DNA from: Sulfurospirillaceae bacterium
GTDB taxonomy: Bacteria; Campylobacterota; Campylobacteria; Campylobacterales; Sulfurospirillaceae
NCBI GenBank assembly: GCA_028692875.1
Contig: JAQUWL010000016.1
Location: 1 to 53,371, forward strand
Length of the DNA stretch: 53,371 bases
Direction of reading: 5' to 3'
Below the pieces are notes generated by a model, which was given only the letters and a program-made list of their open reading frames with translations, made no database searches and was not told the DNA's origin. Position 1 is the first letter of the stretch, and each line of letters starts with the position of its first letter. Of the stretch, positions 804 to 53,114 are shown piece after piece. Position numbers and translations under genes: made by a program.

Positions 804-1893
804 TTGTCTCCTTTACCCATCCGATTTTGCTATTTGGAAGTAAGATTTTGATGTAACCATTTTTTTGGCCCAGCTTCTCTACATGTAAGGATTTTTCTGT
901 TGTGTAAAATACTGAAGATTTTGCTGTTGGCAAAATCATAACATTCGTATTTTCAGCAATAACAACGGCATTAAGATGTGTTTTTTCAAAAAAGAAAAGC
1001 ATTGTAAAGGCGATAGAAAATAGCAGATATATAAACTTTCTTCTTTTGAGGAAAATTAAAAAAATAATCCCAGCAAGGATAGCATAACTCATACTTTTGT
1101 ATAGTTGAAAACTGCTCTCTTTGGGATTAAGTCCTATTTGAGTGCTTACTTCATCGCTATCCAAAACAACGGAAATAGTGTTTTTGATGTATTTGTTTGT
1201 TTTAGTGTCAAAATAGGTAAATTCAAAATTTTGCTGATGTTTTGGAATGATAGCATAGTAGTAAATTTTTTGTACTGGTGAAGTATCCAAAAATGAGTCA
1301 ATATTGTCTTTAACAACCCATTCAAGCGAAAAATCCTTGAGATTTGAGTTTGTTGCTTCTATCTCTAGGACAATAATAAGATTTTTCTCATCGTAAACAG
1401 TTGTTTTGTCTTTTTTGACGACCAATGACTCTGCGATAACATTGCTAAAGTATTTGTCTTTTTTAAGTTGAAAAATCTTTACGGGCGGAAAGCTGATTTG
1501 CTCTGTTTCGATGATTTTTTCGCCAGATAGAACAGAAACGTTTAATGTCGGAGGCGTTACGTTTTGAGATTTTGCCTTGATGTAAAATGTGTTATAAAAT
1601 ATATTGTCGCTATACCATTGCCATTTTGCTTCAGGGTTTGTAATCTCTATGTATTTATTTGGAGAGAAATTATTGGTAATATCATCAAAGTTTTCATCTG
1701 AGATTATAGCTTTTATTCTTACTGGAAAAACCTCTCCAACGTAAGCTTTTGCTGGAGAGGCCTCGCATGATAAAAATAGTGATTTTGATTTTTTGAAAGG
1801 CTCATCTTGAAATGTTTCATCTTCTTGTGCTGACAGAAAAGATGAAAAAATCAGACAAAGTGATAAGATAATCCAGAAAAATCTTTTATTCAT
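787..1893 (-). CDS. Secreted BatD-like protein with C-terminal SH3b domain
   Basis: This 368-residue protein has a signal peptide (MNKRFFWIILSLCLIFSSF, then a cut near SAQ), a long beta-rich region resembling BatD/oxygen-tolerance proteins, a transmembrane stretch near residue 275 and a C-terminal bacterial SH3-like domain ending in a GWVK motif, usually a peptidoglycan-binding module. The frame can be extended upstream into purQ, but the ATG at 1893 places the signal peptide at the N-terminus and leaves four bases after the purQ stop, so I prefer it. One TACATGTA copy encodes Leu-His-Val inside the SH3 domain. The family is recognised only loosely and the function is unknown. Confidence 0.72.
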   Translation of the reverse strand: MNKRFFWIILSLCLIFSSFLSAQEDETFQDEPFKKSKSLFLSCEASPAKAYVGEVFPVRIKAIISDENFDDITNNFSPNKYIEITNPEAKWQWYSDNIFYNTFYIKAKSQNVTPPTLNVSVLSGEKIIETEQISFPPVKIFQLKKDKYFSNVIAESLVVKKDKTTVYDEKNLIIVLEIEATNSNLKDFSLEWVVKDNIDSFLDTSPVQKIYYYAIIPKHQQNFEFTYFDTKTNKYIKNTISVVLDSDEVSTQIGLNPKESSFQLYKSMSYAILAGIIFLIFLKRRKFIYLLFSIAFTMLFFFEKTHLNAVVIAENTNVMILPTAKSSVFYTTEKSLHVEKLGQKNGYIKILLPNSKIGWVKETNVVKN

Positions 1894-1897
1894 AGGC

Positions 1898-2569
1898 TTA
1901 TTTGATAAAGCCTTGAAGCATCTTGACGCCATCTTCTGAGCCCAATAGTGTCTCCATTGCACGCTCTGGATGAGGCATAAGACCAAATACATTTTTGTTT
2001 TTGTTGCAAATGCACGCAATCTCATCAATAGAGCCATTTGGGTTGTCAGTGTTGCCATTTTCATCGCAGTACTTTAGTAAAACCTGATTGTTAATATATA
2101 GCTCTTTGAGTCCATTTTTGTCAATAAAATAGTTTCCCTCTCCGTGTGCAATAGGAATGTTGATAATATCATTATTGGATAGTTTACGAAGAAATTGGTT
2201 GTTGTTGTCAATGACTTTAAGATGTTGATATTTTGAAACAAAGTGAACATTTTGGTTACGCTTCATAGCTCCTGGTAGAAGATGTGCCTCTAGCAACATC
2301 TGAAAACCGTTGCAAATACCCAAAACATAACCACCGTTATTGGCAAACTCAATTACAGCTTTCATGATAGGTGAAAACTTTGCGATAGCTGCACTTCTAA
2401 GATAGTCGCCATAGCTAAAACCACCAGGCAAAACAACCAAATCGGTTCCTTGCGGAAGTTTTTCCTCTTTGTGAAAAACTAAAACCGCCTCTTGACCAAG
2501 TTTTTCAAACGCATATTTGGTGTCCATTTCACAGTTGGTTCCTGGAAAAACAGCAACAGCTACTTTCAT
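1898..2569 (-). CDS. purQ: Phosphoribosylformylglycinamidine synthase, glutaminase subunit
   Basis: PurQ releases ammonia from glutamine and passes it to PurL, which converts FGAR to FGAM in purine synthesis. The 223-residue protein begins MKVAVAVFPGTNCEMD and shows the class I amidotransferase nucleophile in GICNGFQMLLE (Cys near residue 87) and the late His/Glu pair in MPHPERA. The chosen ATG at 2569 overlaps the purS stop as ATGA; the longer frame upstream would lie wholly inside purS and lacks family similarity. PurS and PurC are the preceding genes, while PurL is at 18.7 kb. Confidence 0.97.
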   Translation of the reverse strand: MKVAVAVFPGTNCEMDTKYAFEKLGQEAVLVFHKEEKLPQGTDLVVLPGGFSYGDYLRSAAIAKFSPIMKAVIEFANNGGYVLGICNGFQMLLEAHLLPGAMKRNQNVHFVSKYQHLKVIDNNNQFLRKLSNNDIINIPIAHGEGNYFIDKNGLKELYINNQVLLKYCDENGNTDNPNGSIDEIACICNKNKNVFGLMPHPERAMETLLGSEDGVKMLQGFIK

Positions 2570-5131: not shown

Positions 5132-7705
<2,574 letters not shown>

Positions 7706-7712
7706 GTGTCTT

Positions 7713-7741
7713 TACATGTAGGGGCAAAATCCCTACATGTA
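7713..7741. repeat. Inverted pair of TACATGTA forming a hairpin after clpB
   Basis: Eight bases after the clpB stop, TACATGTAGGG (7713-7723) is repeated in perfect inverse as CCCTACATGTA (7731-7741) around a seven-base loop, giving an 11-bp stem. No U-run follows, so it is not a classical intrinsic terminator, although it could end or protect the clpB transcript. Each arm holds a full copy of the dispersed palindrome. This arrangement is like paired uptake sequences at gene ends in Haemophilus and Neisseria. Confidence 0.8.
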
Positions 7742-7799
7742 GCATCTCTAAAGTCCATATTTTAGGCATATCATAAAATAATACATATAGTTTTATGTA

Positions 7800-8332: not shown

Positions 8333-8761
8333 GTGAGTTATCTCGAATGGTTTGAAAATCACGGCAACAAGCATCTTGAGATAGTGCAAAAGTTGCAAAG
8401 CAAACACTATACAAAAGAGCAAATAATTGACTATTTTTCTTTTGATAACATGTGTAAAAACGAAAGTGATTTTTGCTATCTTTACGCTCAAAATAAAAAG
8501 TGCCATAAGATTACTTATTTAAATTGCTACATGTGTGCATGTCCACATTTTAGATTTAACGACAATGGTTTATTTGAAAAGGATGGAGTTATTGTTAAAA
8601 GTACATGTACTATTGACTCTAAAAAGGCTATATTCTCTACATGTAGCGGCGTATCGCACTTGGATTGCTCTAACTGTACTGTGCCACATTCAAAAAGATT
8701 TATCGTGCAAAATTTTTCAGATGACTGGTTTGAAATTATGAAAAAGTGTAAGAGGGATTAG
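8333..8761 (+). CDS. Cysteine-rich protein of unknown function
   Basis: This 142-residue protein has no signal peptide and 11 cysteines, clustered as CxxxxxFC, KCH, NCYMCACPH and DCSNCTVPH. The spacing suggests a bound metal or iron-sulfur cluster, though no known motif fits exactly. The start is GTG at 8333 with AAAGGGG close upstream. Two TACATGTA copies fall in the gene, both read as Thr-Cys, so two of the cysteines are encoded by the repeat and may not be structural. It is convergent with the RraA-like gene, four bases away. Function is not assigned. Confidence 0.72.
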   Translation: MSYLEWFENHGNKHLEIVQKLQSKHYTKEQIIDYFSFDNMCKNESDFCYLYAQNKKCHKITYLNCYMCACPHFRFNDNGLFEKDGVIVKSTCTIDSKKAIFSTCSGVSHLDCSNCTVPHSKRFIVQNFSDDWFEIMKKCKRD

Positions 8762-12318: not shown

Positions 12319-13886
12319 ACTGCATAAGAACTTTAATCGAAAAGGCGAATCAAAAGTGTCCTGATAAAATCGCTTTGATTGACGGGGTTAAAAAAATAAC
12401 ATACGCAGAGCTTTTTAGTAAAGTAAATCAAGTAGCAAAATATTTTAGCGAGCTAAAACTTGAAAAAGGCTCAAGAATCGGCATATATTCACATAAAAAC
12501 AGTGAGCAGGTAATTGCTATTTTGGCTCTGCTTTCTACGGAGTATATTTTTGTGCCGATTTCTCGTTTCCTGAAACCAGAACAAGTAGAACACATTATCA
12601 AGGATTGTGGTATTGTCTGTTTGATTACTGATTCTGCGAAGATTAAAAGCATTGATGAGATTGATTATGAAGGTATGGTTGTAACTTATGAGGCGATTAA
12701 GCGTGATATTGTCTCTTTTGAGGAGATTTATAAGTGTTGTAGCGATAGCTATACATGTAGCATTGGTGGCTACAAAAATGCCGTTATTACGTACAGTTTT
12801 GGCTTAACCGGTTTTCCAAAAGGTATTGTTATTACGCATCGAAATTTGATAGATAGTGCTAGAGTGGTTTCGCAGTATTTAAGTTTGAAAGAGGGCGATG
12901 TTATTTCGGGTTTACTTCCTTTTATTCTTGATTATGGATTAAATCAGATTTTTTGCTCCATTTACAATAACGCCACACTTGCTATTCACAGTATGCTTTT
13001 GCCGGCAGATTTTTTCAATCATCTAATCAACGACAATGTTACTGTTTTGCCTTTGATGCCAATACATATAACTCAAATGTTTGATGCAGAGGTTCAAAGA
13101 GTTCCAAATGCTAAGCTTTTAGGCAAGATAAGAATTATTACCTCATCTGGTGGTAAGCTCACGCCAAAGATGATTCAAGATATCGAAATGCATTACTCAA
13201 GTGCAAAATTTTTCTCTATGCATGGACTAACCGAGGCTTTTCGCTCAACCTACCTAGACCCAAGCCAGCTTAAAATACGTCCAAATTCTATTGGAAAGCA
13301 GATTCCAGGTGTTGATATACACATCATTAATGATCAAGGAATGGAGTGTGTGCCTAGAGAAATAGGCGAGCTTGTTCACAGAGGAGACTATATCTATAAA
13401 GGATATTGGAACTCTAGGGAAGATACTGATAAGCGTTATAAAAGCATTAAAGTTCTTAAAAATATTGTCAATCTTGAGGGAGATTTGACCGATGAGATAG
13501 TCGTTTGCAGTGGTGATTATGTTTATCGAGATGAAGAAAACTATATATACTTTGTCGGCAGAAAAGATGACATGATAAAGTCATGCGGTTTTAGAATAAG
13601 TCCATATGAGATAGAAAGTGTTGCAAAAGATAAGATATTAAACATCATCGAATGTGCTGTTTTTTCAGTAGAGAATGAAAAAATCGAAGAAGAGATTGTT
13701 ATGGCATATAGTGCAAAGCGTGAAATTCCAAAAAATGAAATCCTCTTTGAGTTAAAACAGCATTTGCCAAACCATATGATACCTTCCATCATAATTTACA
13801 AAGAAAAGTTGCCATTGACCTCTTTAAGTGGTGGCGGAAAAGTAGATAAAGAGGCTCTAAAAAAAGAGGTTTTAAGTTTAAAATAG
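12309..13886 (+). CDS. AMP-forming ligase, resembling exosortase-A-associated ligases
   Basis: This 525-residue ANL-superfamily enzyme activates a carboxylate as an adenylate. Core motifs are A3 as SFGLTGFPKG (the usual SGTTG is degenerate), A5 MHGLTEAFRS, A7 SGDYVYRD, A8 GRKDDMIKSCGFRISPYEIE and A10 with the catalytic lysine in GGGKVDKEAL. The blocks FILDYGLNQ, HGLTEAFRSTYL, RPNSIGKQIPG and EIGELVHRG recall the acyl-CoA ligase family of exosortase A systems (TIGR03098). The ATG at 12309 is within the end of glmL; a longer frame is unlikely. Position suggests a product of glutamate mutase is activated, but no carrier protein or decarboxylase is present nearby. Confidence 0.82.
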   Translation: MSINCIRTLIEKANQKCPDKIALIDGVKKITYAELFSKVNQVAKYFSELKLEKGSRIGIYSHKNSEQVIAILALLSTEYIFVPISRFLKPEQVEHIIKDCGIVCLITDSAKIKSIDEIDYEGMVVTYEAIKRDIVSFEEIYKCCSDSYTCSIGGYKNAVITYSFGLTGFPKGIVITHRNLIDSARVVSQYLSLKEGDVISGLLPFILDYGLNQIFCSIYNNATLAIHSMLLPADFFNHLINDNVTVLPLMPIHITQMFDAEVQRVPNAKLLGKIRIITSSGGKLTPKMIQDIEMHYSSAKFFSMHGLTEAFRSTYLDPSQLKIRPNSIGKQIPGVDIHIINDQGMECVPREIGELVHRGDYIYKGYWNSREDTDKRYKSIKVLKNIVNLEGDLTDEIVVCSGDYVYRDEENYIYFVGRKDDMIKSCGFRISPYEIESVAKDKILNIIECAVFSVENEKIEEEIVMAYSAKREIPKNEILFELKQHLPNHMIPSIIIYKEKLPLTSLSGGGKVDKEALKKEVLSLK

Positions 13887-14119: not shown

Positions 14120-14445
14120 AAAGTTATGAAACTCTCAAGGATACAAGAGAGTATTCATCAATCTATAAAAACGCAAATAAGTGGCATTCGGTTAGTGTTT
14201 TAACTTTTTGCAATAGCGTTTCAGAAAAAAAAGTAGGATTTACCGCCAGCAAAAAGGTTGGTAATGCCATCAAGAGGAATTTGGCTAAGCGTAGATTGAG
14301 AGCCATTTTCCTAGAGATTCAAGAGAGTCTAGACGACGGTATTTACGTGTTTGTAGCAAAAGAGAAAATCAGTGAAATGACATACGAAAATCTCAAAAAA
14401 GAGGTTCTTTGGTCGCTTAGAAGACTGAATTGTATTAAAACGTGA
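14107..14445 (+). CDS. rnpA: Ribonuclease P protein component, non-canonical start
   Basis: RnpA is the protein subunit of RNase P, which trims tRNA 5' ends. The frame contains the family signature [16 protein letters not shown] followed by LAKRRLR (RNR motif) and a normal C-terminal half, ending at TGA 14443-14445. From the upstream stop at 14056 to the conserved core there is no ATG, GTG or TTG in frame. The best candidate is ATT at 14107, inside the rpmH end, giving 112 residues ([16 protein letters not shown]). The rpmH overlap and the following yidD overlap (GTG inside the stop) fit coupled translation. An unseen sequence error is the alternative; the start is uncertain, the gene is not. 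Confidence 0.85.
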
Positions 14446-14825
14446 GAAGAGTAGCCCTTTTTCTAATTAAACTTTATCAAAAGTTTTTAACGGTTTTAAG
14501 TTATGGAAGCTGTAGATACTATCCTACATGCTCTCAGTATGCTAAAGAGCAACTTCTTTTTAATGGATTTTTCAAGGCAATCTTCTATAGTTTATTGCGT
14601 GTTTTAAGATGCAACCAGCTTTTTGCTGGAGGGGTTGACTATCCTGTCGTCACTAAAACATTCACAATTCCTCCTCTTTCTACTACATGTAAGTTCAATT
14701 TTTCAAATATTTCTTTTTGGTTTATTCCAAAAGATTCTAAAAGCTTTTATGTTGTAAGGGCTTTTAAAACACTTAAAAAAGGGACTTCGCAATGGACAAA
14801 CTCAGCAGTCAAACCAGAATTATAA
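14442..14825 (+). CDS. yidD: Membrane protein insertion efficiency factor YidD
   Basis: YidD is a small amphipathic protein that assists YidC in inserting membrane proteins. The core has the family motif SCRYYPTCSQYAKEQL (about residues 23-38) after an N-terminal helix, and the RVLRCNQL block. At 127 residues it is longer than the usual 70-90; the extra C-terminal tail resembles the extension seen in Campylobacterota. It starts with GTG overlapping the rnpA stop and overlaps yidC by 34 bases. A TACATGTA copy (14684) falls in the tail, read as Thr-Cys. Confidence 0.92.
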   Translation: MRRVALFLIKLYQKFLTVLSYGSCRYYPTCSQYAKEQLLFNGFFKAIFYSLLRVLRCNQLFAGGVDYPVVTKTFTIPPLSTTCKFNFSNISFWFIPKDSKSFYVVRAFKTLKKGTSQWTNSAVKPEL

Positions 14826-18638: not shown

Positions 18639-18703
18639 CTTTTTAGTACTTATTTAGCACTTATTTAGTAGAATGAGTGAATTTTATTATGCAGGGTATA
18701 TCT

Positions 18704-20905: not shown

Positions 20906-20918
20906 CTCTTACATGTAA

Positions 20919-20959
20919 GGTTGAAAGGGCTTTTTATGGGCTTTTTCAACCCTTTTTTT
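20919..20959 (+). terminator. Intrinsic terminator of purL
   Basis: GGTTGAAAGGGC (20919-20930) can pair fully, using two G-U pairs, with GCTTTTTCAACC (20940-20951) across a nine-base loop. Seven Ts follow at 20953-20959. This is a classical rho-independent terminator. A TACATGTA copy (20910-20917) lies between the purL stop and the stem. Confidence 0.85.
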
Positions 20960-26447: not shown

Positions 26448-26480
26448 CCATTCAACTATTTACATGTAAGGACATTATCA

Positions 26481-29715: not shown

Positions 29716-30015
29716 ATGGCTATTAGTGAAGAGCAGGTTTATGCTGGAATTTCGACTGTAATTGACCCAGAGGTGGGTTTTGATATTGTCTCACTAGGTT
29801 TAATTTATGGGGTTAAGATAGAAGGAGAACATGTACATGTAACAATGACTCTTTCAACAAGAGGTTGCCCTCTGCACGAGCTTATTAAGCAGTGGACGAA
29901 GGAGTCTGTTGAAAAACTTGAGGGTGTAAAAACTTGTGAGGTTGAAGTGGTTTGGGAGCCAGCTTGGAATATTAGTATGGCAAGTGATATTGTGAAAAAA
30001 GCCTTGGAGGCATAA
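29716..30015 (+). CDS. DUF59/MIP18 iron-sulfur assembly factor
   Basis: The 99-residue protein is a single DUF59 (MIP18, SufT/PaaD-like) domain: VIDPEVGFDIVSLGLIYGV, MTLSTRGCPLHELI with the conserved cysteine, and VWEPAWNISMAS. The family helps to mature iron-sulfur proteins. It ends the cassette with the DUF2249-like and 12-TM genes, which suggests these three act together. One TACATGTA copy reads Val-His-Val. Confidence 0.87.
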   Translation: MAISEEQVYAGISTVIDPEVGFDIVSLGLIYGVKIEGEHVHVTMTLSTRGCPLHELIKQWTKESVEKLEGVKTCEVEVVWEPAWNISMASDIVKKALEA

Positions 30016-31999: not shown

Positions 32000-32040
32000 A
32001 GAAGAAGAGGCTTACATGTAAGCCTCTTCTTCTAATTTTT
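32000..32040. terminator. Bidirectional terminator with TACATGTA at its apex
   Basis: A perfect 34-base palindrome (32000-32033) has arms AGAAGAAGAGGCTTACA and its exact complement, with TACATGTA (32013-32020) in the middle. TAATTTTT follows on the plus strand. It lies six bases after the chemoreceptor stop and overlaps the stop codon of the ABC-F gene on the minus strand, so it can end transcription of the plus-strand gene and perhaps the minus one. Confidence 0.82.
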
Positions 32041-36262: not shown

Positions 36263-36883
36263 ATGAACAAAGTTTTTTCTTTGTGTGTCGTTGCTTTGGG
36301 CTTGTTGTTTCTAAGTGGTTGTGCTACAACAACCTTGCAAACACAAGCAAAAACAACAAGAACTATCTCTTTGAGTCCAGATGTGCTTCAAAGCAAGAGC
36401 GTCTTTTTGAGAGTTACTGGTACCAGTGCAAGTGTTTTAGAGTTGGAGGAGCCACTAAAAAAAGCCCTTCAGGAGAGAGGTGTTAAGCTGGTTGAAGACC
36501 AAAACCTCGCAAATATAAGCCTACATGTAAATACTCTGTTTGCAAACAATCTAAAAGAGGCGTCAAATTATCAAGCTACTTTTGGGGCTGGCGTGACATC
36601 TGGAGTTATCTCTAGGATGGGGGGCAATAGTGGAAAGGATAGTATCTTAATAGGCATAGCCGTAGCAATCGCTATGGGTGTGGCACAAAATGCTCTTGCG
36701 GATGATACATACAGAGCGGTTATAGATATATCTGTACGCACAAAACCAGAGGGAAAAGAGTGGAGCAATGAGGATAAGACAAGAGTCCTTGTTGAGGCGG
36801 TCAAGATGGGTTTGGATGCCAAAGAAGCAAAACCTGTTATGGAAAAACAAGCTGTCCAAAAGATAGCAGATATTTTAAGTTAA
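36263..36883 (+). CDS. TraT-family outer-membrane lipoprotein
   Basis: The 206-residue protein has a lipoprotein signal (LLFLSGC, Cys at residue 19) and matches TraT, the surface-exclusion and complement-resistance protein of F-type plasmids. The match covers SLSPDVLQSKSVFLRVTGTS, a small-residue hydrophobic hairpin (GIAVAIAMGVAQNAL) and the end KEAKPVMEKQAVQKIADIL. No conjugation genes are nearby, so here it is a chromosomal relative of unknown role, perhaps in outer-membrane stability. A TACATGTA copy reads Leu-His-Val. Confidence 0.85.
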   Translation: MNKVFSLCVVALGLLFLSGCATTTLQTQAKTTRTISLSPDVLQSKSVFLRVTGTSASVLELEEPLKKALQERGVKLVEDQNLANISLHVNTLFANNLKEASNYQATFGAGVTSGVISRMGGNSGKDSILIGIAVAIAMGVAQNALADDTYRAVIDISVRTKPEGKEWSNEDKTRVLVEAVKMGLDAKEAKPVMEKQAVQKIADILS

Positions 36884-38748: not shown

Positions 38749-39562
38749 AAAAGCACTGAACGAGGGTGCTTTGCAACTTCTTGAAGTGAGTGATATTCCC
38801 AAAAAAGAGGCGATGATATTTTTATCAGAAGTGTTGCAAAAAGAGACTGTCTGGCTTATAGCAAATAATGATGCTATCGTTGATATCCCTCAAAAGTATT
38901 TTGATTTTATTGAAAGAAGGGCTACATGTGAGCCTTTGGAGTACATCCTAAATAAAGCCGGTTTTTATAAGGAAGAATTTTATGTCGACAAGAGAGTGTT
39001 GATTCCTCGACCTGAAACAGAGATTTTGGTGGACAAAGTTGTGGAGTTAGCCTCTTTTGTAGAAAATCCTCGTATCGTTGAGATAGGCACAGGAAGTGGA
39101 ATTATAAGTATTATGCTCTCTAGGCTTTTGAGCGACCTACATGTAAGGGCAACGGACATCTCAAGTGATGCTTTGGAGGTCGCAAAACTCAATGCCGAAA
39201 AATTTAAAGTCTCAAATAAGATAGATTTTGTGCACGGAAGTTATCTTGATGGCATAGATACTCAAATTGATATTTTGGTTTCAAATCCTCCATATATCGC
39301 AAAAGATGCTAGACTTGAGAAAAATTTGAGCTATGAGCCATCCTTGGCACTTTTTGGTGGAGAAAAAGGCGATGAGATGTTGTTTGAGATTATTGATTTG
39401 GCATTTGAGCGAGATGTCCGATTTTTGGTTTGTGAGATGGGATATGATCAAAAAAAGCCTATATCGGATCATGTAGCCAAAAAAGGTGCTACGACCTATT
39501 TTTATGAAGATTTTCAAGGATTTGATAGAGGTTTTTGGGTTGATTTGGGAAAGAGGAGATAA
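38732..39562 (+). CDS. prmC: Release factor glutamine methyltransferase
   Basis: PrmC methylates the glutamine of the GGQ motif in release factors 1 and 2. The 276-residue protein has a helical N-terminal domain, the SAM-binding block IVEIGTGSGIISIML (near residue 110) and the catalytic VSNPPYI motif (near residue 180). The start is TTG 38732 inside the M48 gene; GTG at 38738 is equally possible. A TACATGTA copy reads Leu-His-Val in the SAM domain. Its stop lies in a hairpin shared with the ftsZ side. Confidence 0.94.
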   Translation: MKVQIKKALNEGALQLLEVSDIPKKEAMIFLSEVLQKETVWLIANNDAIVDIPQKYFDFIERRATCEPLEYILNKAGFYKEEFYVDKRVLIPRPETEILVDKVVELASFVENPRIVEIGTGSGIISIMLSRLLSDLHVRATDISSDALEVAKLNAEKFKVSNKIDFVHGSYLDGIDTQIDILVSNPPYIAKDARLEKNLSYEPSLALFGGEKGDEMLFEIIDLAFERDVRFLVCEMGYDQKKPISDHVAKKGATTYFYEDFQGFDRGFWVDLGKRR

Positions 39563-40749: not shown

Positions 40750-42126
40750 CTAAAATAATTGTGTAAGGCGATTCCACAAGCGTGAGCCTAAGCTCTCTTT
40801 GTGGATATTATCTTGAATTGTTGCTATATTTGCTAATCTCTCTTTTTGTGTTACCAGTCCAGAGAGTTCTTTTCCCATTTCGTCCTCTATATCATTTTCG
40901 TCATCTTGTTGATTTACAGGAATGTTTTTTACCGGTTCTATTGTCTCATTTTTATACCGTAATTTTCTATTTGAATCTATCTCGTAAGGCGTAAAATGAC
41001 CAGCTCCATAAAGTATCAATCCAATGGCTGTTGAATAACTAGGGTCTCTTATTGTCTCAAAAAGACCTTCCATCTCTTTTGGTTTAGCTATGCGTATTGG
41101 AATGTTGTCAAAAATTGCCGAGGCAAGATCTCTAATGCCATCCAATTTGGTCATTCCTCCAGTTAAAACAACTCCAGCACCGAGCTTATCTTTATATCCA
41201 CTATCTTCTATCATCTTTGCCAATATCATAAGTGTCTCTTCTGCTCTTACATAGATAACATTGGAAACGATGTCTAAAGAGACTTCGTGTGTCGAACCAT
41301 CATCGCCGATAATTGGAAGCTCTACCAACTCACTTGAGTTGCCTCTTAGCGAGCCATAATTTATCTTTATGTCTTCTGCTGCACCCAGTGGGGTGTGAAG
41401 TGCTGTTGAAAGGTCATTTGTTATATTTTGTGAACCTACACCCAAAAAATCGTTAAATCTAACGGAATTTCCTGCATGTACAATAAGATTACATGTAGCT
41501 CCACCAATATCAATAACTCCTACACCCAACTCTTTTTCATCACAGTTTAGTACAGCTATGGCTGAAGCGTATCCTCCTAACACAACATTGTCTATCTCAA
41601 TGCCTGCTGATTTAACGGCTTTTTTGAGATTGCTTAGTGATGAGCGTTGAGCTGTAATGATATGTGCTTGAACTTCGAGTCTTGCACCATTCATCCCAAA
41701 AGGGTCTTCTATAAACTCTTGATCATCTACTTTAAAATTATATGGGAGTACATGCAACTTCTCATACTCGTTTGGAATGCTAGCGTTATGGTCTGCCATT
41801 TGTATAGCACGGTTTATCTCTTTTATGCCAATATCTCTATTTGGGATATTGACAATACCGCTACTATCAATGCTTTTGGTGTATGCGCCAGAGATAGATA
41901 CTATTACACGTTCATATTGTGTTCCAGCAACTCTTTTGGCATCATTTAGAGCATTTTTTATAGACTTTGACGCCAACTCAATATTGGTAATAATGCCCTT
42001 TTTAAGTCCTTGTGACTTTGCGATACCAGCACCCAGAATTTTTACATCACCATTATCATCTTTTTCTGCGATAATAGCACAAATCTTTGTAGAGCCGATG
42101 TCAATACCTAAAATCGTAGTGCTCAA
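40750..42126 (-). CDS. ftsA: Cell division protein FtsA
   Basis: FtsA is the actin-like membrane tether of FtsZ. The 458-residue protein opens with ILGIDIGSTKICAII and has ASKHA motifs VIDIGGATCNLIV (near residue 205) and VLTGGMTKLDGI, and ends in an amphipathic helix (SLGSRLWNRLTQLF) that binds the membrane. The start is TTG at 42126 with AAGGA upstream, directly after the ppiD-like stop. A TACATGTA copy falls in the second phosphate loop, read as Thr-Cys. Confidence 0.96.
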   Translation of the reverse strand: MSTTILGIDIGSTKICAIIAEKDDNGDVKILGAGIAKSQGLKKGIITNIELASKSIKNALNDAKRVAGTQYERVIVSISGAYTKSIDSSGIVNIPNRDIGIKEINRAIQMADHNASIPNEYEKLHVLPYNFKVDDQEFIEDPFGMNGARLEVQAHIITAQRSSLSNLKKAVKSAGIEIDNVVLGGYASAIAVLNCDEKELGVGVIDIGGATCNLIVHAGNSVRFNDFLGVGSQNITNDLSTALHTPLGAAEDIKINYGSLRGNSSELVELPIIGDDGSTHEVSLDIVSNVIYVRAEETLMILAKMIEDSGYKDKLGAGVVLTGGMTKLDGIRDLASAIFDNIPIRIAKPKEMEGLFETIRDPSYSTAIGLILYGAGHFTPYEIDSNRKLRYKNETIEPVKNIPVNQQDDENDIEDEMGKELSGLVTQKERLANIATIQDNIHKESLGSRLWNRLTQLF

Positions 42127-43683: not shown

Positions 43684-44994
43684 ATGAGCTTTTTTGCAAA
43701 TGAAATGATAGCTGAAGATTTGAAGTATATTTGGCATCCTTGTACTCAAATGAAAGACCATGAAAACATTCCTCTGGTAGCGATAAAAAGTGCAAAAGGT
43801 GTCTATTTAAATGATTATAATGATAACAGTTATATTGATGGTGTTAGCTCATGGTGGGTAAATTTATTTGGTCATTGCAATGATTATATAGGTTCAAAAA
43901 TCAAGCAACAGCTTGATACGTTAGAGCATGTTATTTTTGCTGGATTTACACATGAGCCTATCGTAACTCTATCACAAAGACTTTGCAAGTTAGCTCCAGA
44001 AGGACTGTGTAAATGTTTTTATGCGGATAATGGTTCTAGCGGTGTAGAGATAGCACTAAAGATGAGTTTTCAGTACCATAAAAATTCTGGAAAAATACGC
44101 CCTTTTTTTCTCTCTTTGGAAAACAGTTATCATGGCGAAACGTTAGGTGCTTTATCGGTAGGGGATGTAACGCTTTATAAAGATGTTTTTAACGAGATTA
44201 TTATAAAGACTATCCAGACAAGCTCTCCTAAAAATCAAACCATAGATGAGGCAAAAAGAGCCGCTTGTGAGCTTGAAAAGTTATTAAAACAAAGGGGAGA
44301 TGAGATATCGGCTTTTATTATTGAGCCATTGGTGCAGTGTGCTGGGTCGATGAAAATGTATCATCCACTTTATGTTACTTTAGCAAGAGAGTTGTGTACT
44401 AAGTACGGAGTTCATTTGATTGCCGATGAGGTTGCGGTTGGATTTGGAAGAACGGGAACTATGTTTGCATGCGAGCAAGCTAGTGTGAGTCCTGATTTTA
44501 TGGTGCTTTCAAAAGGTATAACGGGCGGATATCTGCCACTTTGTGTTGTTTTAACCACGCAAGATGTTTATGATAGATTTTATTGTGATTATCTTGAGTA
44601 TAAGGCTTTCTTGCACTCACATAGCTATACGGGAAATCCTTTGGCGTGTGTTGCGGCAAACGCTGTTTTAGACATCTTTGAAAATGAAAATGTGATACAA
44701 AACAATCAAAAAACAATCGCCTATATCGCTGAAAAACTTAAAAAGTTTGAAGGGCTTTCAAATGTTCAAGAGGTTAGGCAAACCGGTATGGTTTCAGCTA
44801 TTGAGCTTTGTGGGTATTCTCCTCAAGAGAGAGTAGGTTTAAAGATTTTTGAGTATGCCCTTGCTAGAGGCGTGCTACTAAGACCTTTGGGTAATGTTAT
44901 CTATTTTATGCCACCTTATATCATTACATGTAAAGAGATTGATAAGGTTTTAGATACTGCATACGATGCTATATCGTCACTTGTATTGCTTTGA
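43684..44994 (+). CDS. bioA: Adenosylmethionine-8-amino-7-oxononanoate aminotransferase
   Basis: BioA makes 7,8-diaminopelargonate in biotin synthesis, using SAM as amino donor. The 436-residue PLP enzyme has the N-terminal IWHPCTQMKD, the SSWWVNLFGHC block, the DEVAVGFGRTG motif and the PLP lysine in LSKGITGGYLPL (near residue 280). Length is normal. AGAGG precedes the ATG, and a TATAAT box lies at 43623-43628. A TACATGTA copy near the 3' end reads Thr-Cys. It overlaps the end of the convergent aldolase-like gene by 18 bases. Confidence 0.96.
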   Translation: MSFFANEMIAEDLKYIWHPCTQMKDHENIPLVAIKSAKGVYLNDYNDNSYIDGVSSWWVNLFGHCNDYIGSKIKQQLDTLEHVIFAGFTHEPIVTLSQRLCKLAPEGLCKCFYADNGSSGVEIALKMSFQYHKNSGKIRPFFLSLENSYHGETLGALSVGDVTLYKDVFNEIIIKTIQTSSPKNQTIDEAKRAACELEKLLKQRGDEISAFIIEPLVQCAGSMKMYHPLYVTLARELCTKYGVHLIADEVAVGFGRTGTMFACEQASVSPDFMVLSKGITGGYLPLCVVLTTQDVYDRFYCDYLEYKAFLHSHSYTGNPLACVAANAVLDIFENENVIQNNQKTIAYIAEKLKKFEGLSNVQEVRQTGMVSAIELCGYSPQERVGLKIFEYALARGVLLRPLGNVIYFMPPYIITCKEIDKVLDTAYDAISSLVLL

Positions 44995-46841: not shown

Positions 46842-49800
46842 TTGATACATAGTTTTATAAAATTTTCGGTAGAAAAGTCCGTACTTAACCACATATTTCT
46901 TATTTTTTTAGTTGTTTTGGGTGTATTTTCTTATCAAAGTATCCCAAAGGAGATATTTCCCCCTTCAAATCTTGATGCTATTGCCGTCACTGGCGGATAT
47001 GAGGGCACTAGCCCCGATGTTTTGGATAAGATGGCGGTAAAGCCTATAGAGGAAGATATCTCCAATTTGAACGACATCGACAGAATTGAAAGTAAGTTGT
47101 CAAATGGTGCTTTTGGCATCACAATATATCTAAAAGAGGGCTCGGACGTGGGAGAGTCACTTGAAGATATAAAAGATATTGTTTCTTCCAAAAAGAAAGA
47201 TTTTCCAGCAGATATGAATGAGCCTGTATCTAAAATTCTTAAAACTTCTTATCCCCTTGTTGCCATAGCCCTAGCTTCTGGAGAGTCGATGGAGGAGATG
47301 CTACATGTAGCCGACAATCTCAAAAGTGAGATTTCAAAAATCCAAAATCTGAGTGACATAAAAATCAATGGCGATGCGGACAAAGAACTTGTTATCAAAA
47401 TAGACGAAAAAAAATTAGCAGCATTGGATATTAGTCCTCAAGATGCCTTCAATGCAATATCTTCTTTGAGTACTGTTTTTCCAATAGGAATAATAAAGGA
47501 GAGGGGCAGACATCTTTTTGTTAGCACTTTGGGTGGAGAGGATGTTTTGGATAAGATTCAAAATAGTCGTCTTTTGGTTGGGGATAAAAAGATATTTTTT
47601 AAAGATATCGCAAAAGCAGAATTTACGCTATCTGATGTTTTTGAGGTTTCCCACTTTAATGGCAGACCAAATATATCCATCACTATCAATAAGTCTAAAG
47701 AGGGCAATGCAATCGCACTTGTAAAAGAGATAAAAAAAGTTTTAAATGCCTATAAGGAACAGTATACGGGTTATGATTTTGAAGTTTATAGCGATACTTC
47801 GGTATGGATACGCAATCGTCTAAATACCGTAATATCCAATATTGCACTAGGGCTTATATTGGTTTATTTGTCTATTTTTTTGTTCATCAATGGCAGGGTG
47901 GCTTTTATCGTCGGAATAGGCATTCCGGTAAGTTTTATCATAGGTTTGATCGCAAGTGAGCTGATGGGCTATAGCCTAAATATGCTCTCCTTGCTAGGTG
48001 CGCTTATTGCTCTGGGTATGCTTGTAGATGAGGCTATCGTGGTGTCGGAAAATATTTATCGGCATATCGAAAATGGCAAAGATGCTAAAACTGCCGCCAT
48101 TGATGGTGCTTATGAGATGTTTCCAGCTGTATTAACAGCTACGGCGACGACTATATTTGCTTTTTTACCTATGTTGATTATGAGTGGAGAGATGGGTGTT
48201 TTTATGCGTATTTTGCCAATCATAATATCCATACTGCTTGTCTCATCGCTTTTTGAGGCTTTTTTCTTTCTTCCTCTACATGCAAAGGATTTTTTAAAGA
48301 CAGAGATTAAGAGAAAAAAACTTCATTCGTGGCTTGAAGATTGGGGTAGGATTTATAGAAAAATATTGTCATTTTTATTGGCGTATAAAAAGAGTTTTAT
48401 GGCTCTGTTTTTGATTTTTGTTATATTTGGAACGGTAATGCTATTTAAAAGAAGCAATTTTCAGCTTTTTCCTGATTTTGACAATACTCAAATCTTTATC
48501 ACTGGAAAAGTCAATATAAATAACTCTGTTCAAGAGACGCAGGAGATTATTTCTAGGGTTGAGAAGATTTTGTTGGAAAATCTTTCAAAAGATGAGGTAT
48601 CTTCTATCACTTCAACCTCTGGATTTATGCTTGATGCGAAGTTTCAGCCACATATTGCCGAAAACAATTTTCATATTTTTATCAATCTTTACGAAGCGTT
48701 GCCTGTCAATTTTTTGGATAAATATATAAATCCTTATCTCTCGCCAGAGCATGATGATGAAAACGCTAGAAGAGGGCGTAGTGCAAATGCGATTTTGGTT
48801 GATGTTAAAAGATTGACGCAGGAGATTAGCCAAAGTAAGGATTTTGAAGAGTTTAGAGCTCTTGTTCCTGGTGCGGGGCTTGTTAAAAATGATATCGAGA
48901 TAGCATTAAGCTCAAAAGACGAACAACTTGTTCAGGAGTCTGTTGATATGCTTTCTAAAAAACTTAAAGAGATGAATGGCGTTTATAATGTAAGCAATGA
49001 CCTTTTAGAAGGCGAGAAAGAGCTCAAAATTCGCATTAACGCCTACGGTCAATCTTTGGGCTTTAGTGAAAAAAGTGTTGCCTCGTTTTTGCGTCCATAC
49101 TTTTTTAAGGCTGAGGCTGCGAAAATGTATTATGAAAATGAGCTTATTCGTGTTAAAACACAAGAGAAGATGAAAGATACTTTTGAAGCACTTGACTCTT
49201 TTTATCTTTTTGTTCCAAGCCAAAACAAAAGGGTCTCATTGCGTGAAATTGCTGATTTTGAGGTTAAAAATGGATATGCAAATATCTACAAATATAATGG
49301 CAAAAGGACAAGTACAGTTTTTGGTTCTTTGACAAAATCCACTCTTACGTCTGCCAAATTTTTAAAATTGATTGAGCCAGAGTTGGAGAAAGTGCGACAA
49401 AAAGGGGTCGAGGTTGATATAAAAGGGGAGCAAAAAGAGAATAAAAAAATTCAAGCAGAGATGGCAAAAGCAGCGGTTATAGCTATTTTTCTTATCTTTT
49501 TAGCACTGGTTTGGATGTTTGATTCTATTTTCTTGTCTTTGGTGGTTTTAAGTGTTATACCTTTGTCTCTACTTGGGGTTTTGGTGGGACACGAGATTAT
49601 GGGACTAAATCTGACTATGCCCGGAGTATTGGGCATAGTTGGCTTGTGTGGAGTTGTTGTAAATGATGGAATTATTATGATTAAGTTTTTAAAGGATGCC
49701 AAAACAATAGAAGAGGTTTTGGATTTGGCGATGCTTCGTTTAAGACCTATAATGCTAACTTCCGTAACTACAATTTTGGGACTATCTTCGTTGATATTTT

Positions 49801-49940: not shown

Positions 49941-51135
49941 TATGATGATATTTGGTGTAGCTTTAGTTGTTTTGGTTCTTACATGTAGCGTTGTTTTGTT
50001 TGTTAAAATCTCATCTTTGGATATGAGAGCTTTGTTTGATAAGCATAAGGATTTTATATATGAAAAAATGGTTGACAATGCCAAAAGTGCTGGCGAGCAG
50101 ATAGAAAAAAATGCAGAACTTTTTCTAAAAATATCAACTTCACAAGAAAGGATGAAGGAAGAGTTGCAAAAGCTTTTGTTTCAAATGAACAAAGATATAC
50201 TCCAAAGCGTGACAGTGTCGCTTAAAGAGCAAAAAGAGCAATCCAGTAAAGACTTTGAAAAACTCTCAAAAGAGGTAGATATAAGACTTCAGGTTATTAA
50301 CGAAAAAGTTGAAAAAAGGCTTGAAAAAGGGTTTGAAAATATTGATAAAACCTTTAAAGATATCATAGTAGGAATCGCCAAAATCGGTGAAGCACAAAAG
50401 AAAATAGAGAGTCTTAGTAGTGAAGTAACCTCACTTCAAAGTGTACTAACGGATAAAAAATCCAGAGGTATATTTGGTGAGGTTCAGCTAAGTGGCATTT
50501 TGAAGTCTATTTTTGGCGAGCGTCACGACATGTACGAGCTTCAATACTCGTTTAAAACAGGCGTTATCGCTGATGCTATCATCAAAGCTCCATCGCCACT
50601 AGGGATTATTTCGGTGGATTCTAAGTTTCCGCTTGAAAATTATACTCGGATGATTGAGGATAAAAAATTTACATCGGATTTTAAGCAAAATATCAAAAAA
50701 CATGTAAACGATATTGCGTCTAAATATATCATTAACGGTGTTACTGCGGATATGGCGATACTATTTTTACCAGCTGAGGCTATCTTTGCAGAGATTAACG
50801 CATATCATGAAGATTTGATAGATTATGCACGTCAATGCAAAGTTTGGATAGCCTCTCCAACAACCTTTATGGCATTATTAACAACAGTTACGGCTATCGT
50901 GCGAGATATTAAAACACAAGAACAAGCCAAGAAAATCCAAGAAGAGTTGCTTAAGCTCTCTGTTAATTTTAAGCGTTACAAAGAGCGTTGGGACAGCCTA
51001 TCTAAGCATATAGATACGGTAAATAAAGATGTTAAAGAGATAACTGCCACGACCCACAAAATCTCTAGCGAGTTTGAGCGAATAGAAAAGGTTGAGTTTA
51101 AAGATGAAGAGGTTTTATTGCCTCCTAGCGTTTAA
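49930..51135 (+). CDS. rmuC: DNA recombination protein RmuC
   Basis: The 401-residue RmuC-family protein has an N-terminal membrane anchor (residues 4-26), a long coiled coil (about 35-165) and a nuclease-like core with SRGIFGEVQLSGIL, IISVDSKFPLENY (PD-(D/E)XK-type Asp...Lys) and VWIASPTTFMALL. RmuC limits inversions at short repeats and has been linked to defence against foreign DNA. A TACATGTA copy lies in the anchor, read as Thr-Cys. It overlaps the RND gene by 11 bases. Confidence 0.93.
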   Translation: MQNDMMIFGVALVVLVLTCSVVLFVKISSLDMRALFDKHKDFIYEKMVDNAKSAGEQIEKNAELFLKISTSQERMKEELQKLLFQMNKDILQSVTVSLKEQKEQSSKDFEKLSKEVDIRLQVINEKVEKRLEKGFENIDKTFKDIIVGIAKIGEAQKKIESLSSEVTSLQSVLTDKKSRGIFGEVQLSGILKSIFGERHDMYELQYSFKTGVIADAIIKAPSPLGIISVDSKFPLENYTRMIEDKKFTSDFKQNIKKHVNDIASKYIINGVTADMAILFLPAEAIFAEINAYHEDLIDYARQCKVWIASPTTFMALLTTVTAIVRDIKTQEQAKKIQEELLKLSVNFKRYKERWDSLSKHIDTVNKDVKEITATTHKISSEFERIEKVEFKDEEVLLPPSV

Positions 51136-51140
51136 ACTCT

Positions 51141-53114
51141 TTAGTCTATCGTTTTAAACAATTCTGGTCGGTACTCAAAGTGCATTGTGTCATAGTGGTA
51201 CCACCGCCCGCCCCAGATAAATCCGTGTCGCTCAAAAATATCTACAATAACCTTAGGAATAGCATTGGAAAAGCGATATTGCTTATCCCACTTCCAATAT
51301 GCTGAGTGCTGGGTGTTTAGGTCAATAGCGATACCGTATGAGTGAGCACTTAGGCGTTTTGTTCCAGCGATATTGCGATAGGCAAATGTTCCATTTATGT
51401 TTTTGACGTATTTTAGGTATTCGGTTGGAAGTTTATCAAGCTCGTTTGAGACTTTTTGAAGTTGTTTTGCGGCGTTTTCTTTTCCGTTAAAATAGATTTT
51501 TGCCCCTTCGTTTTTTGGAAGCCATATCACTTGTGCTAAGTTTTTTCTAACCTCATCCTCGGTTTCGCCATAGAGTTTTTTAAAAAACGCCTCGTTTCTA
51601 AAGCGACCAGGGTCTTCGTCTGTTTTTGGCTCCACAATCTCAGCAAAAGCTGGATATGACTGTGAAATCTGATCTTCAATATCTGCATTTTCAAGTTTTT
51701 GTTCAAATGTTTTTGTTTGTCCGTCATCGTAAGCAAGAGATGAGCCATCAGCAAAATAGACACTATTATCTTTTATATTTTTAATGCTCGGATATTTGTC
51801 TTTAAAGCGAGTCTCAATGCTATTTTTAGATGGCTCTACAACAATTCCTTCAACTCTGCTGATAAGCAAAGCTTCATTTGGAACATCGGGCTGATTTTCT
51901 CCTACATGTAGGTCTGAAACTATGGCTTTGCCGATGATTTTTCGACCCTCTTTGCCATCATTTAATGTTTTCACACCCCATGTGTTATGGACAACCATGG
52001 CTTTATTGTCGAATTCTCCAGCGTATAGCATGATGTGACCGCTAAGATACAATAGGCTTACAAACGGTATAGCATTTTTAACTATCATTGCCTCTTTTTC
52101 CTCGTTAGATAAGTTTTTTAAGGAGATATATTTTCCAAAATTTTTCTGTGCGCCAGAGTTTCTAGGTATCCATACGCCAAAAGGGGTAAAATAATCCCTT
52201 GTCATAGCAGAACAATCCCTATTTCCTAGATATCCGCCCCAGCCATAATTTTCTCCAAGCAATGAGCTTACAACAGCTTTGACGTTTTGTTTTTCAAAAT
52301 CAATAGGAAACTTTTTTGCATCTTTTTTTGATACTTTTATTGTAACTTTTGCGGGTTCGTTTTTGGCATCAGTGTGATACATGTAAGCACTATATGTTTC
52401 GTTATTTTCCTCTGTCGTCGGTAGTAAAGTTCCAATTTTTGAGTATGTTAAAAATCTATTGTTATCGCTATATAGTGGAGTGTTGTCTGTTATTATGACT
52501 ATTTTTGGCTGTAGCAATAAAGCGACTCTACTTGAAGCATCTAGCTGTACAAATGTATCTACATGTAGCCATCCCATAGAAAATGAGCTTTTTATAAATG
52601 CCCACGCACCGTCTTTTGAGTAGTGTGAAAGTATAATAGGCTCATTTATATTTATGCGTGAATTTTGCAGATAATCAAATGGAAAACCCTCTCCTGGAAG
52701 AGTTGTTTTTTTAAAAAACGGTTTGTCTGTTGGAAGATTTCGCATCTGAGCATTTTGTACCATAATCGCATGTTCATTTAAAGAGCCGTAAGCATCAAAA
52801 TTTGTATTTTCAATAACCTTTTCAATCGTCTCATCTGGTATTGGCAACATTGTTTCGCCATAGTATCGCTTTTTAATGCCAAATGTTTTATGTGACCACC
52901 TAGCATCTTCTTTTGATGTTTCAATATTTGTTAAAAACCAAGGCTTGTAGTAGCGATAGATAAAATCCTTTTGTGCCACCTCTCTTTGCGTGATAGTGTG
53001 TTCTAAAAAATTAACATTTTGTGGGTATGTCAATAGCGGTTCTGGGTGTTTAGGCAGACATCCGCTCAAAAAAAAGGCTACATGTAAGATGAGTATAATA
53101 TTTCGATATGACAT
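51141..53114 (-). CDS. Lipoprotein fusing NlpC/P60 and M15 peptidoglycan peptidases
   Basis: The 657-residue protein has a lipoprotein signal (FFLSGC, Cys 19), SH3-like modules (about residues 125-235), an NlpC/P60 endopeptidase domain with catalytic Cys 301 (NRDCSAMTRDYF), His 360 (LSGHIMLYAGE) and NTW near 377, and then a C-terminal M15 carboxypeptidase domain (about 490-657) with zinc motif SAHSYGIAIDLN and HYDTMHFEYRPEL. One chain could thus cut both peptide stems or cross-links and terminal residues of peptidoglycan. Four TACATGTA copies fall in the gene (51903, 52378, 52560, 53079), the highest number in any gene of the window. Confidence 0.9.
   Translation of the reverse strand: MSYRNIILILHVAFFLSGCLPKHPEPLLTYPQNVNFLEHTITQREVAQKDFIYRYYKPWFLTNIETSKEDARWSHKTFGIKKRYYGETMLPIPDETIEKVIENTNFDAYGSLNEHAIMVQNAQMRNLPTDKPFFKKTTLPGEGFPFDYLQNSRININEPIILSHYSKDGAWAFIKSSFSMGWLHVDTFVQLDASSRVALLLQPKIVIITDNTPLYSDNNRFLTYSKIGTLLPTTEENNETYSAYMYHTDAKNEPAKVTIKVSKKDAKKFPIDFEKQNVKAVVSSLLGENYGWGGYLGNRDCSAMTRDYFTPFGVWIPRNSGAQKNFGKYISLKNLSNEEKEAMIVKNAIPFVSLLYLSGHIMLYAGEFDNKAMVVHNTWGVKTLNDGKEGRKIIGKAIVSDLHVGENQPDVPNEALLISRVEGIVVEPSKNSIETRFKDKYPSIKNIKDNSVYFADGSSLAYDDGQTKTFEQKLENADIEDQISQSYPAFAEIVEPKTDEDPGRFRNEAFFKKLYGETEDEVRKNLAQVIWLPKNEGAKIYFNGKENAAKQLQKVSNELDKLPTEYLKYVKNINGTFAYRNIAGTKRLSAHSYGIAIDLNTQHSAYWKWDKQYRFSNAIPKVIVDIFERHGFIWGGRWYHYDTMHFEYRPELFKTID

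What the first reader, a model, noticed from the sequence alone, without database searches (positions are those of the whole stretch)
880..53086. A highly iterated 10-base palindrome, YTACATGTAR, dispersed through genes and gaps
I count 29 exact TACATGTA in 53.4 kb, about one per 1.8 kb, where base composition (about 36% GC) predicts about two. In 24 of 29 the flanks extend the symmetry to YTACATGTAR, against a quarter expected by chance. Inside genes it is read as Leu-His-Val (12), Val-His-Val (1), Thr-Cys (9) or Tyr-Met (2) in unrelated proteins, so neither codon bias nor a protein motif explains it. The pattern resembles HIP1 of cyanobacteria or uptake sequences of Neisseria and Haemophilus. 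Possible roles are DNA uptake or self-recognition, a methylation site, or a nucleoid or segregation mark. I know of no described system of this kind in Campylobacterota.
Basis: partly seen in the sequence, partly recalled or inferred. Interest (0 to 1): 0.9.

Follow-up and report, generated by a model that had tools for sequence, protein, structure and literature searches.

The report
Sulfurospirillaceae genomes tagged with palindrome
These bacteria carry hundreds of scattered, well-preserved copies of one short mirror-image DNA word, and it behaves much like the "self" tags that some competent bacteria use to recognise their own DNA for uptake, a use not tested here.

Summary
TACATGTA occurs 29 times in the window (shuffle mean 0.8; synonymous-codon shuffle 2.3 against 23 in genes) and 887 times in the 1.94 Mb genome (control word 28). 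The unit is longer than reported: a graded 14-bp palindrome, CTTTACATGTAAAG. The genome belongs to Sulfurospirillaceae (Campylobacterota); 32 of 37 family genomes hold 259-1727 copies. Scattered genomes of other families of the class carry the same word; most are at background. Sites are kept: between motif-rich genomes of 75-80% identity 404 of 562 aligned sites are intact, against 16% of other 8-mers; in eight motif-poor loci 2 of 274. Copies are 13-fold denser in convergent gaps than in genes (other palindromes 1.4-fold), lie a median 21 nt from stop codons when in gaps, and sometimes pair into hairpins. By presence, no D12, N4/N6 or C5 methyltransferase and no extra ParB tracks the motif. 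ComEC and, where the contig shows it, pseudopilin genes beside priA occur in motif-rich genomes, but also in motif-poor ones. Best reading: a palindromic DNA-uptake-type self tag (inferred, about 0.45); rivals are a HIP1-like, methylation-linked repeat or a chromosome-binding protein's site. Function is untested.

The parts
880..887 (.). TACATGTA, in ORF 787-2064 (-), read LHV
5232..5239 (.). TACATGTA, in ClpB-type ORF 5132-7705 (+), LHV
7713..7720 (.). TACATGTA, begins 8 nt after a stop codon; left arm of hairpin pair
7734..7741 (.). TACATGTA, right arm of the same hairpin pair
7706..7745 (+). hairpin built from two copies of the motif (MFE -18.9 kcal/mol, z -5.1); no T run follows
8602..8609 (.). 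TACATGTA, in ORF 8333-8761 (+), Thr-Cys
8638..8645 (.). TACATGTA, in ORF 8333-8761 (+), Thr-Cys
12752..12759 (.). TACATGTA, in ORF 12264-13886 (+), Thr-Cys
14684..14691 (.). TACATGTA, in YidD ORF 14442-14825 (+), Thr-Cys
17587..17594 (.). TACATGTA, in MnmE ORF 17379-18638 (+), LHV
17872..17879 (.). TACATGTA, in MnmE ORF 17379-18638 (+), LHV
20910..20917 (.). TACATGTA, begins 5 nt after the stop of ORF 18677-20905 (+)
21544..21551 (.). TACATGTA, in ORF 21014-23764 (+), Thr-Cys
21672..21679 (.). TACATGTA, in ORF 21014-23764 (+), LHV
22867..22874 (.). TACATGTA, in ORF 21014-23764 (+), Thr-Cys
26461..26468 (.). TACATGTA, gap just upstream of the AICARFT/IMPCHase-type ORF 26481-28013 (+)
26719..26726 (.). 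TACATGTA, in AICARFT/IMPCHase-type ORF 26481-28013 (+), LHV
28727..28734 (.). TACATGTA, in ORF 28454-29713 (+), Tyr-Met
29834..29841 (.). TACATGTA, in the gap after ORF 28454-29713
32013..32020 (.). TACATGTA, centre of a convergent-gap hairpin
32000..32033 (+). perfect 15-bp terminator-like hairpin centred on the motif, followed by AATTTTT, between convergent genes (MFE -23.4, z -5.9)
36522..36529 (.). TACATGTA, in ORF 36263-36883 (+), LHV
39138..39145 (.). TACATGTA, in ORF 38732-39562 (+), LHV
41490..41497 (.). TACATGTA, in FtsA ORF 40750-42126 (-), Thr-Cys
44925..44932 (.). TACATGTA, in ORF 43684-44994 (+), Thr-Cys
47302..47309 (.). TACATGTA, in AcrB-type ORF 46842-49940 (+), LHV
49980..49987 (.). 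TACATGTA, in ORF 49930-51135 (+), Thr-Cys
51903..51910 (.). TACATGTA, in ORF 51141-53114 (-), LHV
52378..52385 (.). TACATGTA, in ORF 51141-53114 (-), Tyr-Met
52560..52567 (.). TACATGTA, in ORF 51141-53114 (-), LHV
53079..53086 (.). TACATGTA, in ORF 51141-53114 (-), LHV

Best explanation
The motif is a genome-wide self tag that works like the DNA uptake sequences of Neisseria and Haemophilus, but palindromic. Shown: a fixed 8-bp core in a graded 14-bp palindrome (CTTTACATGTAAAG), one copy per about 2 kb, in genes and preferentially in convergent gaps close to stop codons, kept at the same places over long divergence and eroded in some lineages. Inferred: a symmetric DNA-binding part of the competence machinery (for example a pseudopilin encoded beside priA and near comEC) prefers double-stranded DNA that carries the tag; biased uptake followed by recombination spreads and repairs tags (molecular drive), mostly where they cost least; when the preference is lost or changes, the tags decay by point mutation.
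For: Density: 32 of 37 Sulfurospirillaceae genomes hold 259-1727 copies, backward control 16-74. Similar extended consensus in other lineages: flank +1 A 95%, +2 A 78%, +3 G 47% in S. diekertiae JPD-1 (G019); 84/71/67% in G404; 85/78/68% in G099; weaker in G389 (A 53%, G 35%, G 43%); seen in coding and intergenic sites. Permissive placement: per 10 kb 3.87 coding, 9.6 divergent, 15.2 tandem, 50.2 convergent; convergent/coding ratio 13.0 against 1.4 for the 255 other palindromes pooled. Of 131 gap sites with a flanking stop, the median distance is 21 nt, 73 within 30 nt; 36 pairs within 40 nt, 19 of them in gaps. Neisseria uptake sequences also form close inverted pairs at terminators (passages of PMC2397512; PMC3630211). 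Conservation: 338 of 704 sites intact at 70-75% identity against 10% of other 8-mers, 404 of 562 against 16% at 75-80%; 2 of 274 in eight motif-poor loci (pairs not independent). Erosion by distinct positions: G031 9 of 11 and G010 8 of 10 intact, G022 5 of 12, G016 1 of 11, G013 0 of 9. No origin/terminus trend in 20 sampled stretches. Plasmid pSulSP depleted: 34 in 200 kb, 97 expected at the JPD-1 density. ComEC in 60 of 60 genomes; pseudopilin, priA and comEC in 20 of 20 regions.
Against: No uptake experiment exists. [quoted passage not shown] ComEC and the pseudopilin-priA genes are equally present in motif-poor G003, G013, G245 and G401, so nothing found tracks the motif; no receptor was identified. 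Plasmid pSDCE1 is not significantly depleted (14 against 19.3). Palindromes suit hairpin terminators whatever their role. The alternate palindrome of G093 shows no gap enrichment. A paper states that efficient genetic tools are lacking for organohalide-respiring Sulfurospirillum (passage of PMC8865925), and my searches listed no report of natural transformation there.
Confidence: 0.45

Rival explanations
1. A HIP1-like highly iterated palindrome tied to DNA methylation: an orphan methyltransferase recognises an inner word (CATG, ACATGT or the octamer), and methylation-directed repair or selection for methylated sites keeps the words.
For: Palindromic octamer with extended palindromic flanks, as for HIP1 in 12 cyanobacterial genomes (section 2.4 read); among single-mismatch sites the largest excess is at the outermost base (T>C 24 against 4.3 expected), as HIP1 deviations favour the ends (abstract); an alternate palindrome, CTATCATGATAG, in G093 and G091, as alternate HIPs occur in some cyanobacteria (abstract); C. 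jejuni uptake depends on methylation.
Against: No methyltransferase of three families is shared by the motif-rich genomes: D12 in 37 of 45 genomes, N6_N4 in 25 of 45, C5 in 39 of 60, and motif-rich G033 (671), G016 (342) and G023 (259) have none of the three; the most widespread D12 clade also sits in motif-poor G003, G088, G091, G093. Type I, IIG and III families and MutL were not searched, so this is not closed.
Confidence: 0.2
2. The binding site of an unknown abundant chromosome-organising or segregation protein (a dimeric helix-turn-helix or ParB-like protein).
For: A symmetric graded 14-bp consensus looks like a dimer's site; copies in all 20 sampled stretches of one chromosome; few long gaps (1 above 6 kb, 5.5 expected; 20-kb stretches under-sample long gaps).
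Against: ParB_N search of 58 genomes: exactly one match in 51, two or three in five (G002, G012, G039, G072, G095), none in G096 and in motif-rich G098; no paralog follows the motif. No ori/ter trend in 20 stretches of G019. Hundreds of sites kept one by one in coding sequence would need a selection per site that is hard to imagine (inference).
Confidence: 0.2
3. A terminator or transcription element, or protein-coding bias, that merely happens to be palindromic.
For: Convergent-gap and hairpin placement near stop codons.
Against: 416 of 577 sampled sites are in genes, read mainly as Leu-His-Val, Thr-Cys or Tyr-Met; shuffling synonymous codons removes nearly all of them.
Confidence: 0.05

Closest known systems
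DNA uptake sequences of Neisseriaceae (DUS) and uptake signal sequences of Pasteurellaceae (USS)
   Same: One short word per 1-2 kb; enriched in permissive and intergenic places; close inverted pairs at terminators; conserved at position; family-wide with deviating genomes; one mobile plasmid depleted (34 of 97 expected).
   Different: Known ones are not palindromes; here no receptor and no uptake data; pSDCE1 is not depleted; different phylum.
HIP1 (GCGATCGC) of cyanobacteria and alternate HIPs (Elhai 2015, PMC4390886)
   Same: Octamer palindrome with palindromic extension, about 0.5 per kb here against about 1 per kb; lost or replaced in some relatives (abstract).
   Different: A+T-richer; no methyltransferase of the three families searched is shared; 13-fold convergent-gap enrichment, for which I saw no HIP1 counterpart in the parts read; found in Campylobacterota.
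Methylated RAATTY discrimination in Campylobacter jejuni natural transformation
   Same: Same phylum; palindromic word; self/non-self DNA uptake; a pilin-like gene beside priA (Cj0683) (passages).
   Different: There the methyl mark matters; here the word itself is strongly over-represented and no shared methyltransferase was found in three families.
parS and Noc-type sites (recalled)
   Same: Symmetric TTTnnn-nnnAAA layout of a 12-14 bp site (recalled from memory, not tested).
   Different: Hundreds of copies; no ter gap in the stretches sampled; no ParB paralog that follows the motif.

Membership tests
DNA uptake sequence (DUS/USS) | Gross over-representation of one short word genome-wide | tested here: met
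   887 against 28 control in G000; 259-1727 in 32 of 37 family genomes
DNA uptake sequence (DUS/USS) | Intergenic enrichment and inverted pairs at transcription terminators | tested here: met
   hairpins folded for 3 window sites, 2 stand out
DNA uptake sequence (DUS/USS) | Positional conservation above the local background | tested here: met
DNA uptake sequence (DUS/USS) | Rare in recently acquired DNA | tested here: inconclusive
   pSulSP 34 against 97 expected; pSDCE1 14 against 19.3, not significant
DNA uptake sequence (DUS/USS) | Competence machinery present in carriers | tested here: met
   ComEC 60 of 60; pseudopilin, priA, comEC in 20 of 20 regions; but both also in motif-poor genomes
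DNA uptake sequence (DUS/USS) | Non-palindromic word | tested here: not met
   14-bp palindrome; known ones are not palindromes
DNA uptake sequence (DUS/USS) | Enhances DNA uptake through a specific receptor | not testable with these tools
   needs an uptake experiment
HIP1-type highly iterated palindrome | Highly frequent octamer palindrome, palindromic extension | tested here: met
HIP1-type highly iterated palindrome | Cognate methyltransferase generally present with the word | tested here: inconclusive
   not met for three families: G033, G016 and G023 have none; type I, IIG and III not searched
HIP1-type highly iterated palindrome | Methylation of an inner word | not testable with these tools
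   no long-read signal data
ParB/Noc binding sites | Cognate ParB-family paralog | tested here: not met
   exactly one ParB_N match in 51 of 58 genomes, none in motif-rich G098

The most novel reading that the evidence does not exclude
CTTTACATGTAAAG is the first palindromic DNA uptake sequence and a third group of genome-wide uptake tags, shared by several Campylobacterota lineages, lost repeatedly by erosion, with another CATG-centred word (CTATCATGATAG) iterated in a neighbouring lineage.
Probability: 0.38. Interest if true: 0.88.

Novelty: new variant of a known kind. Interest (0 to 1): 0.77.

Why it matters
Genome-wide self tags are known in few groups, and why they exist is debated. Here a whole family, with complete genomes of named strains (S. 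diekertiae, S. cavolei), carries one at hundreds to nearly two thousand copies, while relatives are caught at several stages of losing it. That natural series allows a direct test of whether such tags are kept by uptake bias, by methylation-linked repair or by a structural protein, and how they relate to C. jejuni's methyl-dependent uptake. A working tag could also help to transform Sulfurospirillum species, some of which dechlorinate solvents.

Tried and rejected
Methyltransferases: PF02086, PF01555 and PF00145 profiles do not follow the motif; clustering of 30 D12 proteins, after a first script that ignored strand was redone, gave one widespread clade (CtsM-like is my recalled label) in motif-rich and motif-poor genomes alike. 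ParB paralog: rejected. A discriminating gene near comEC-priA: in 20 genomes by 20 kb each, none is in all 16 motif-rich and absent from the 4 motif-poor. Active removal of sites in motif-poor genomes: the 0 of 44 in G013 and 0 of 43 in G072 shrink to 10 and 11 distinct positions, and sites gained after the split would also look absent, so plain decay suffices; G072 counts as motif-poor there although it holds 270 copies. GCAATTGC in Arcobacter-like loci looked like another dialect but is coding-only, with flanks that give no clear palindromic extension: dropped. ATCCGGAT (8 against 1.0) was not followed up. G003: TATCATGATA 166 copies, control 2, but only 10 in a 240-kb sample and no clear flanks: a weak excess, not a clear swap. 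T-rich tract at flank +5 to +9 is mostly an intergenic effect. Not run: MutL, HsdM, Eco57I searches; structure prediction.
Full report
Observation. TACATGTA occurs 29 times in the 53,371-base window; 100 dinucleotide shuffles average 0.80 and reach at most 4. An order-3 Markov model expects 0.47, and it has the highest z of all octamers; the next ones are words overlapping it. 24 of 29 are YTACATGTAR against a chance of 0.25, and shuffling synonymous codons over 43 window ORFs leaves 2.3 on average (maximum 5, 20 repeats) where 23 are seen. Over the whole genome (1,935,516 bases, 44 contigs) there are 887, against 28 of the backward control word.

Which organism. An MnmE scan of named genomes returned Sulfurospirillum and Sulfurospirillaceae records as nearest relatives (60-68% identity for L005-L036). 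G019 has the contig length of S. diekertiae JPD-1 (2,814,086) and G022 that of S. cavolei UCH003 (2,698,323), and Sulfurospirillum is placed in Sulfurospirillaceae, so I take the genome's family 'f1' to be Sulfurospirillaceae.

Distribution. Of 60 genomes, 37 are in f1: 32 hold 259-1727 copies and five (G003 28, G013 109, G014 104, G015 165, G025 92) fewer; the other 23, from 21 other families, hold 1-23. In a class-wide draw of 397 genomes, 374 lie outside f1: ten hold 221-1480 (G201, G212, G265, G278, G376, G389, G397, G404, G424, G434), three 91-113 (G245, G306, G409), the others 61 or fewer. Among 40 genomes reached through named loci, three more that are not Sulfurospirillum by name are rich: G095 1072, G098 406, G099 1031 (kinship is not told there). 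So the word is family-wide here and patchy elsewhere in the order.

The true unit. In 199 sites of 23 loci the flanks continue the symmetry. Per lineage the outward flank reads A, A, G: G019 95/78/47%, G404 84/71/67%, G099 85/78/68%; the window's genome has R 91%, then A 43/G 34%, then G 48%; G389 is weaker (A 53, G 35, G 43%). It is seen in coding and intergenic sites. YTACATGTAR makes up 699 of 887 in G000, 1239 of 1480 in G404, 982 of 1072 in G095, but 347 of 848 in G265, the lowest of 15 genomes (with totals). Single-mismatch octamers are few; only the outermost T>C is clearly in excess (24 against 4.3).

Placement. Over 577 sites sampled in six groups, 416 are coding, 153 in gaps, 8 at stretch edges; per 10 kb there are 3.87 in genes, 9.6 in divergent, 15.2 in tandem and 50.2 in convergent gaps; the convergent/coding ratio is 13.0, against 1.4 for the other 255 palindromes pooled and 4.8 for the next of those with 60 or more copies. 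Genes were called by a simple longest-ORF script. Of 131 gap sites with a flanking stop codon the median distance is 21 nt, 73 within 30 nt; 36 pairs lie within 40 nt: 14 coding, 19 in gaps, 3 at edges; two copies of a palindrome always form an inverted repeat. In the window, 7713/7734 and 32013 fold into hairpins (z -5.1 and -5.9), only the second followed by a T run; 20910 does not stand out (z -1.5). In S. diekertiae JPD-1 20 spaced 20-kb stretches (400 kb of 2.81 Mb) hold 5-15 copies each without an origin or terminus trend; spacing has more close pairs (17 against 4.7) and fewer gaps above 6 kb (1 against 5.5) than random, though short stretches under-sample long gaps.

Maintenance and loss. 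Aligning two syntenic regions all against all, between motif-rich loci the octamer is intact in 338 of 704 cases at 70-75% identity (other 8-mers 10%) and 404 of 562 at 75-80% (16%); against eight loci treated as motif-poor (from G003, G013, G401, G245, G072, G093, G091, G088; G072 holds 270 copies) 2 of 274 are intact. These pairs are not independent, and loci under 9 kb were left out. By distinct positions seen in at least two sources, intact copies are G031 9 of 11, G010 8 of 10, L012 10 of 11, L013 10 of 12; G033 5 of 10 (and L011, with the same genome total, 9 of 11); G022 5 of 12 (L024 5 of 11); G016 1 of 11 (L019 6 of 12); G013 0 of 9; G072 0 of 7, five of them one substitution away. 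This looks like maintenance in rich genomes and erosion in poor ones.

What could read it. Three DNA methyltransferase families fail to follow the motif: D12 in 37 of 45 genomes, N6_N4 in 25 of 45, C5 in 39 of 60; motif-rich G033, G016 and G023 show none. ParB_N gives exactly one match in 51 of 58 genomes, two or three in five and none in two. ComEC is in 60 of 60. The priA profile is over its cut-off in 28 of 30 genomes; G025 has a fragment at a contig end and G014 only a weak match. Beside priA, where the contig reaches, lie one to three small proteins with a type IV pilin-like N-terminus (N_methyl domain in the two of G000). The priA-proximal pseudopilin, priA, an IspG-like gene (named from recall) and comEC are in 20 of 20 regions examined, 16 motif-rich and 4 poor. 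A pilin pattern found nothing in the fetched comEC regions of G044, G046 and G103, all motif-poor, nor in the short G091 stretch, but did in motif-poor G039, G088 and G093. In C. jejuni the pilin-like Cj0683 next to priA is needed to start DNA uptake, and uptake needs methylated RAATTY (passages). This makes a pseudopilin receptor plausible, not shown.

Mobile DNA. Plasmid pSulSP of Sulfurospirillum sp. 'SP' has 34 copies in 200,000 of 200,667 bases where the JPD-1 chromosomal density predicts 97 (part of it is a duplicated region); pSDCE1 of S. diekertiae has 14 against 19.3, four of them inside its DNA adenine methylase gene and five in and around its LexA-type gene beside DNA polymerase IV.

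A second word. G093, with 18 TACATGTA, carries ATCATGAT 91 times in 96.4 kb against 10.1 expected, extended to CTATCATGATAG (+1 A 91%, +2 G 63%); G091 has 12 in 21 kb. It is not enriched in gaps. In the class draw only G003 stands out for TATCATGATA (166, control 2; the next is 23), but the excess there is weak and without clear flanks. Alternate palindromes are known for HIP1 (abstract) and dialects for Neisseriaceae (passages).

Judgement. Works like: an uptake-type self tag is the best fit (gap placement near stops, core precision, positional conservation, competence genes), about 0.45. Is a member: no; palindromy departs from known DUS/USS, one paper disputes a downstream bias of those, and uptake is untested. 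HIP1 membership is not supported on the methyltransferase feature as far as three families go. Literature was searched in ten queries; no listed title or abstract start describes this motif in Campylobacterota. Of PMC4390886 I read the abstract, section 2.4 and the first of two parts of section 3.4; of PMC8865925, PMC4687349, PMC2397512, PMC10046745, PMC3630211 and PMC1939737 passages only.

Noticed in passing
L454-L457, L039 (G093) and L036 (G091): A different highly iterated palindrome, CTATCATGATAG (ATCATGAT 9.4 per 10 kb in G093), in a lineage with background TACATGTA; about equally dense in genes and gaps.
   Followed up: partly
G003 genome (L437-L441, L475-L480): The one f1 genome with background TACATGTA has 166 TATCATGATA (control 2), a weak diffuse excess of TATCATGA.
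   Followed up: partly
L338 (pSDCE1) 1692-2732 and 20494-21355: Motif copies cluster on a plasmid: four inside a DNA adenine methylase gene and five in and around a LexA-type gene beside DNA polymerase IV.
   Followed up: no
L402-L421: Pseudopilin genes lie directly upstream of priA and near comEC; by eye the first pilin varies much between species and the priA-proximal one less.
   Followed up: partly
L048 and pooled higher-GC loci; G046 stretches L450-L453: ATCCGGAT (8 against 1.0 expected in seven pooled loci) and, in G046, TAAATTTA (112 against 30) are also over-represented palindromes.
   Followed up: no
L085-L094: A second D12 methyltransferase clade (270-298 aa) occurs in ten genomes, motif-rich and motif-poor, including G000.
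   Followed up: no
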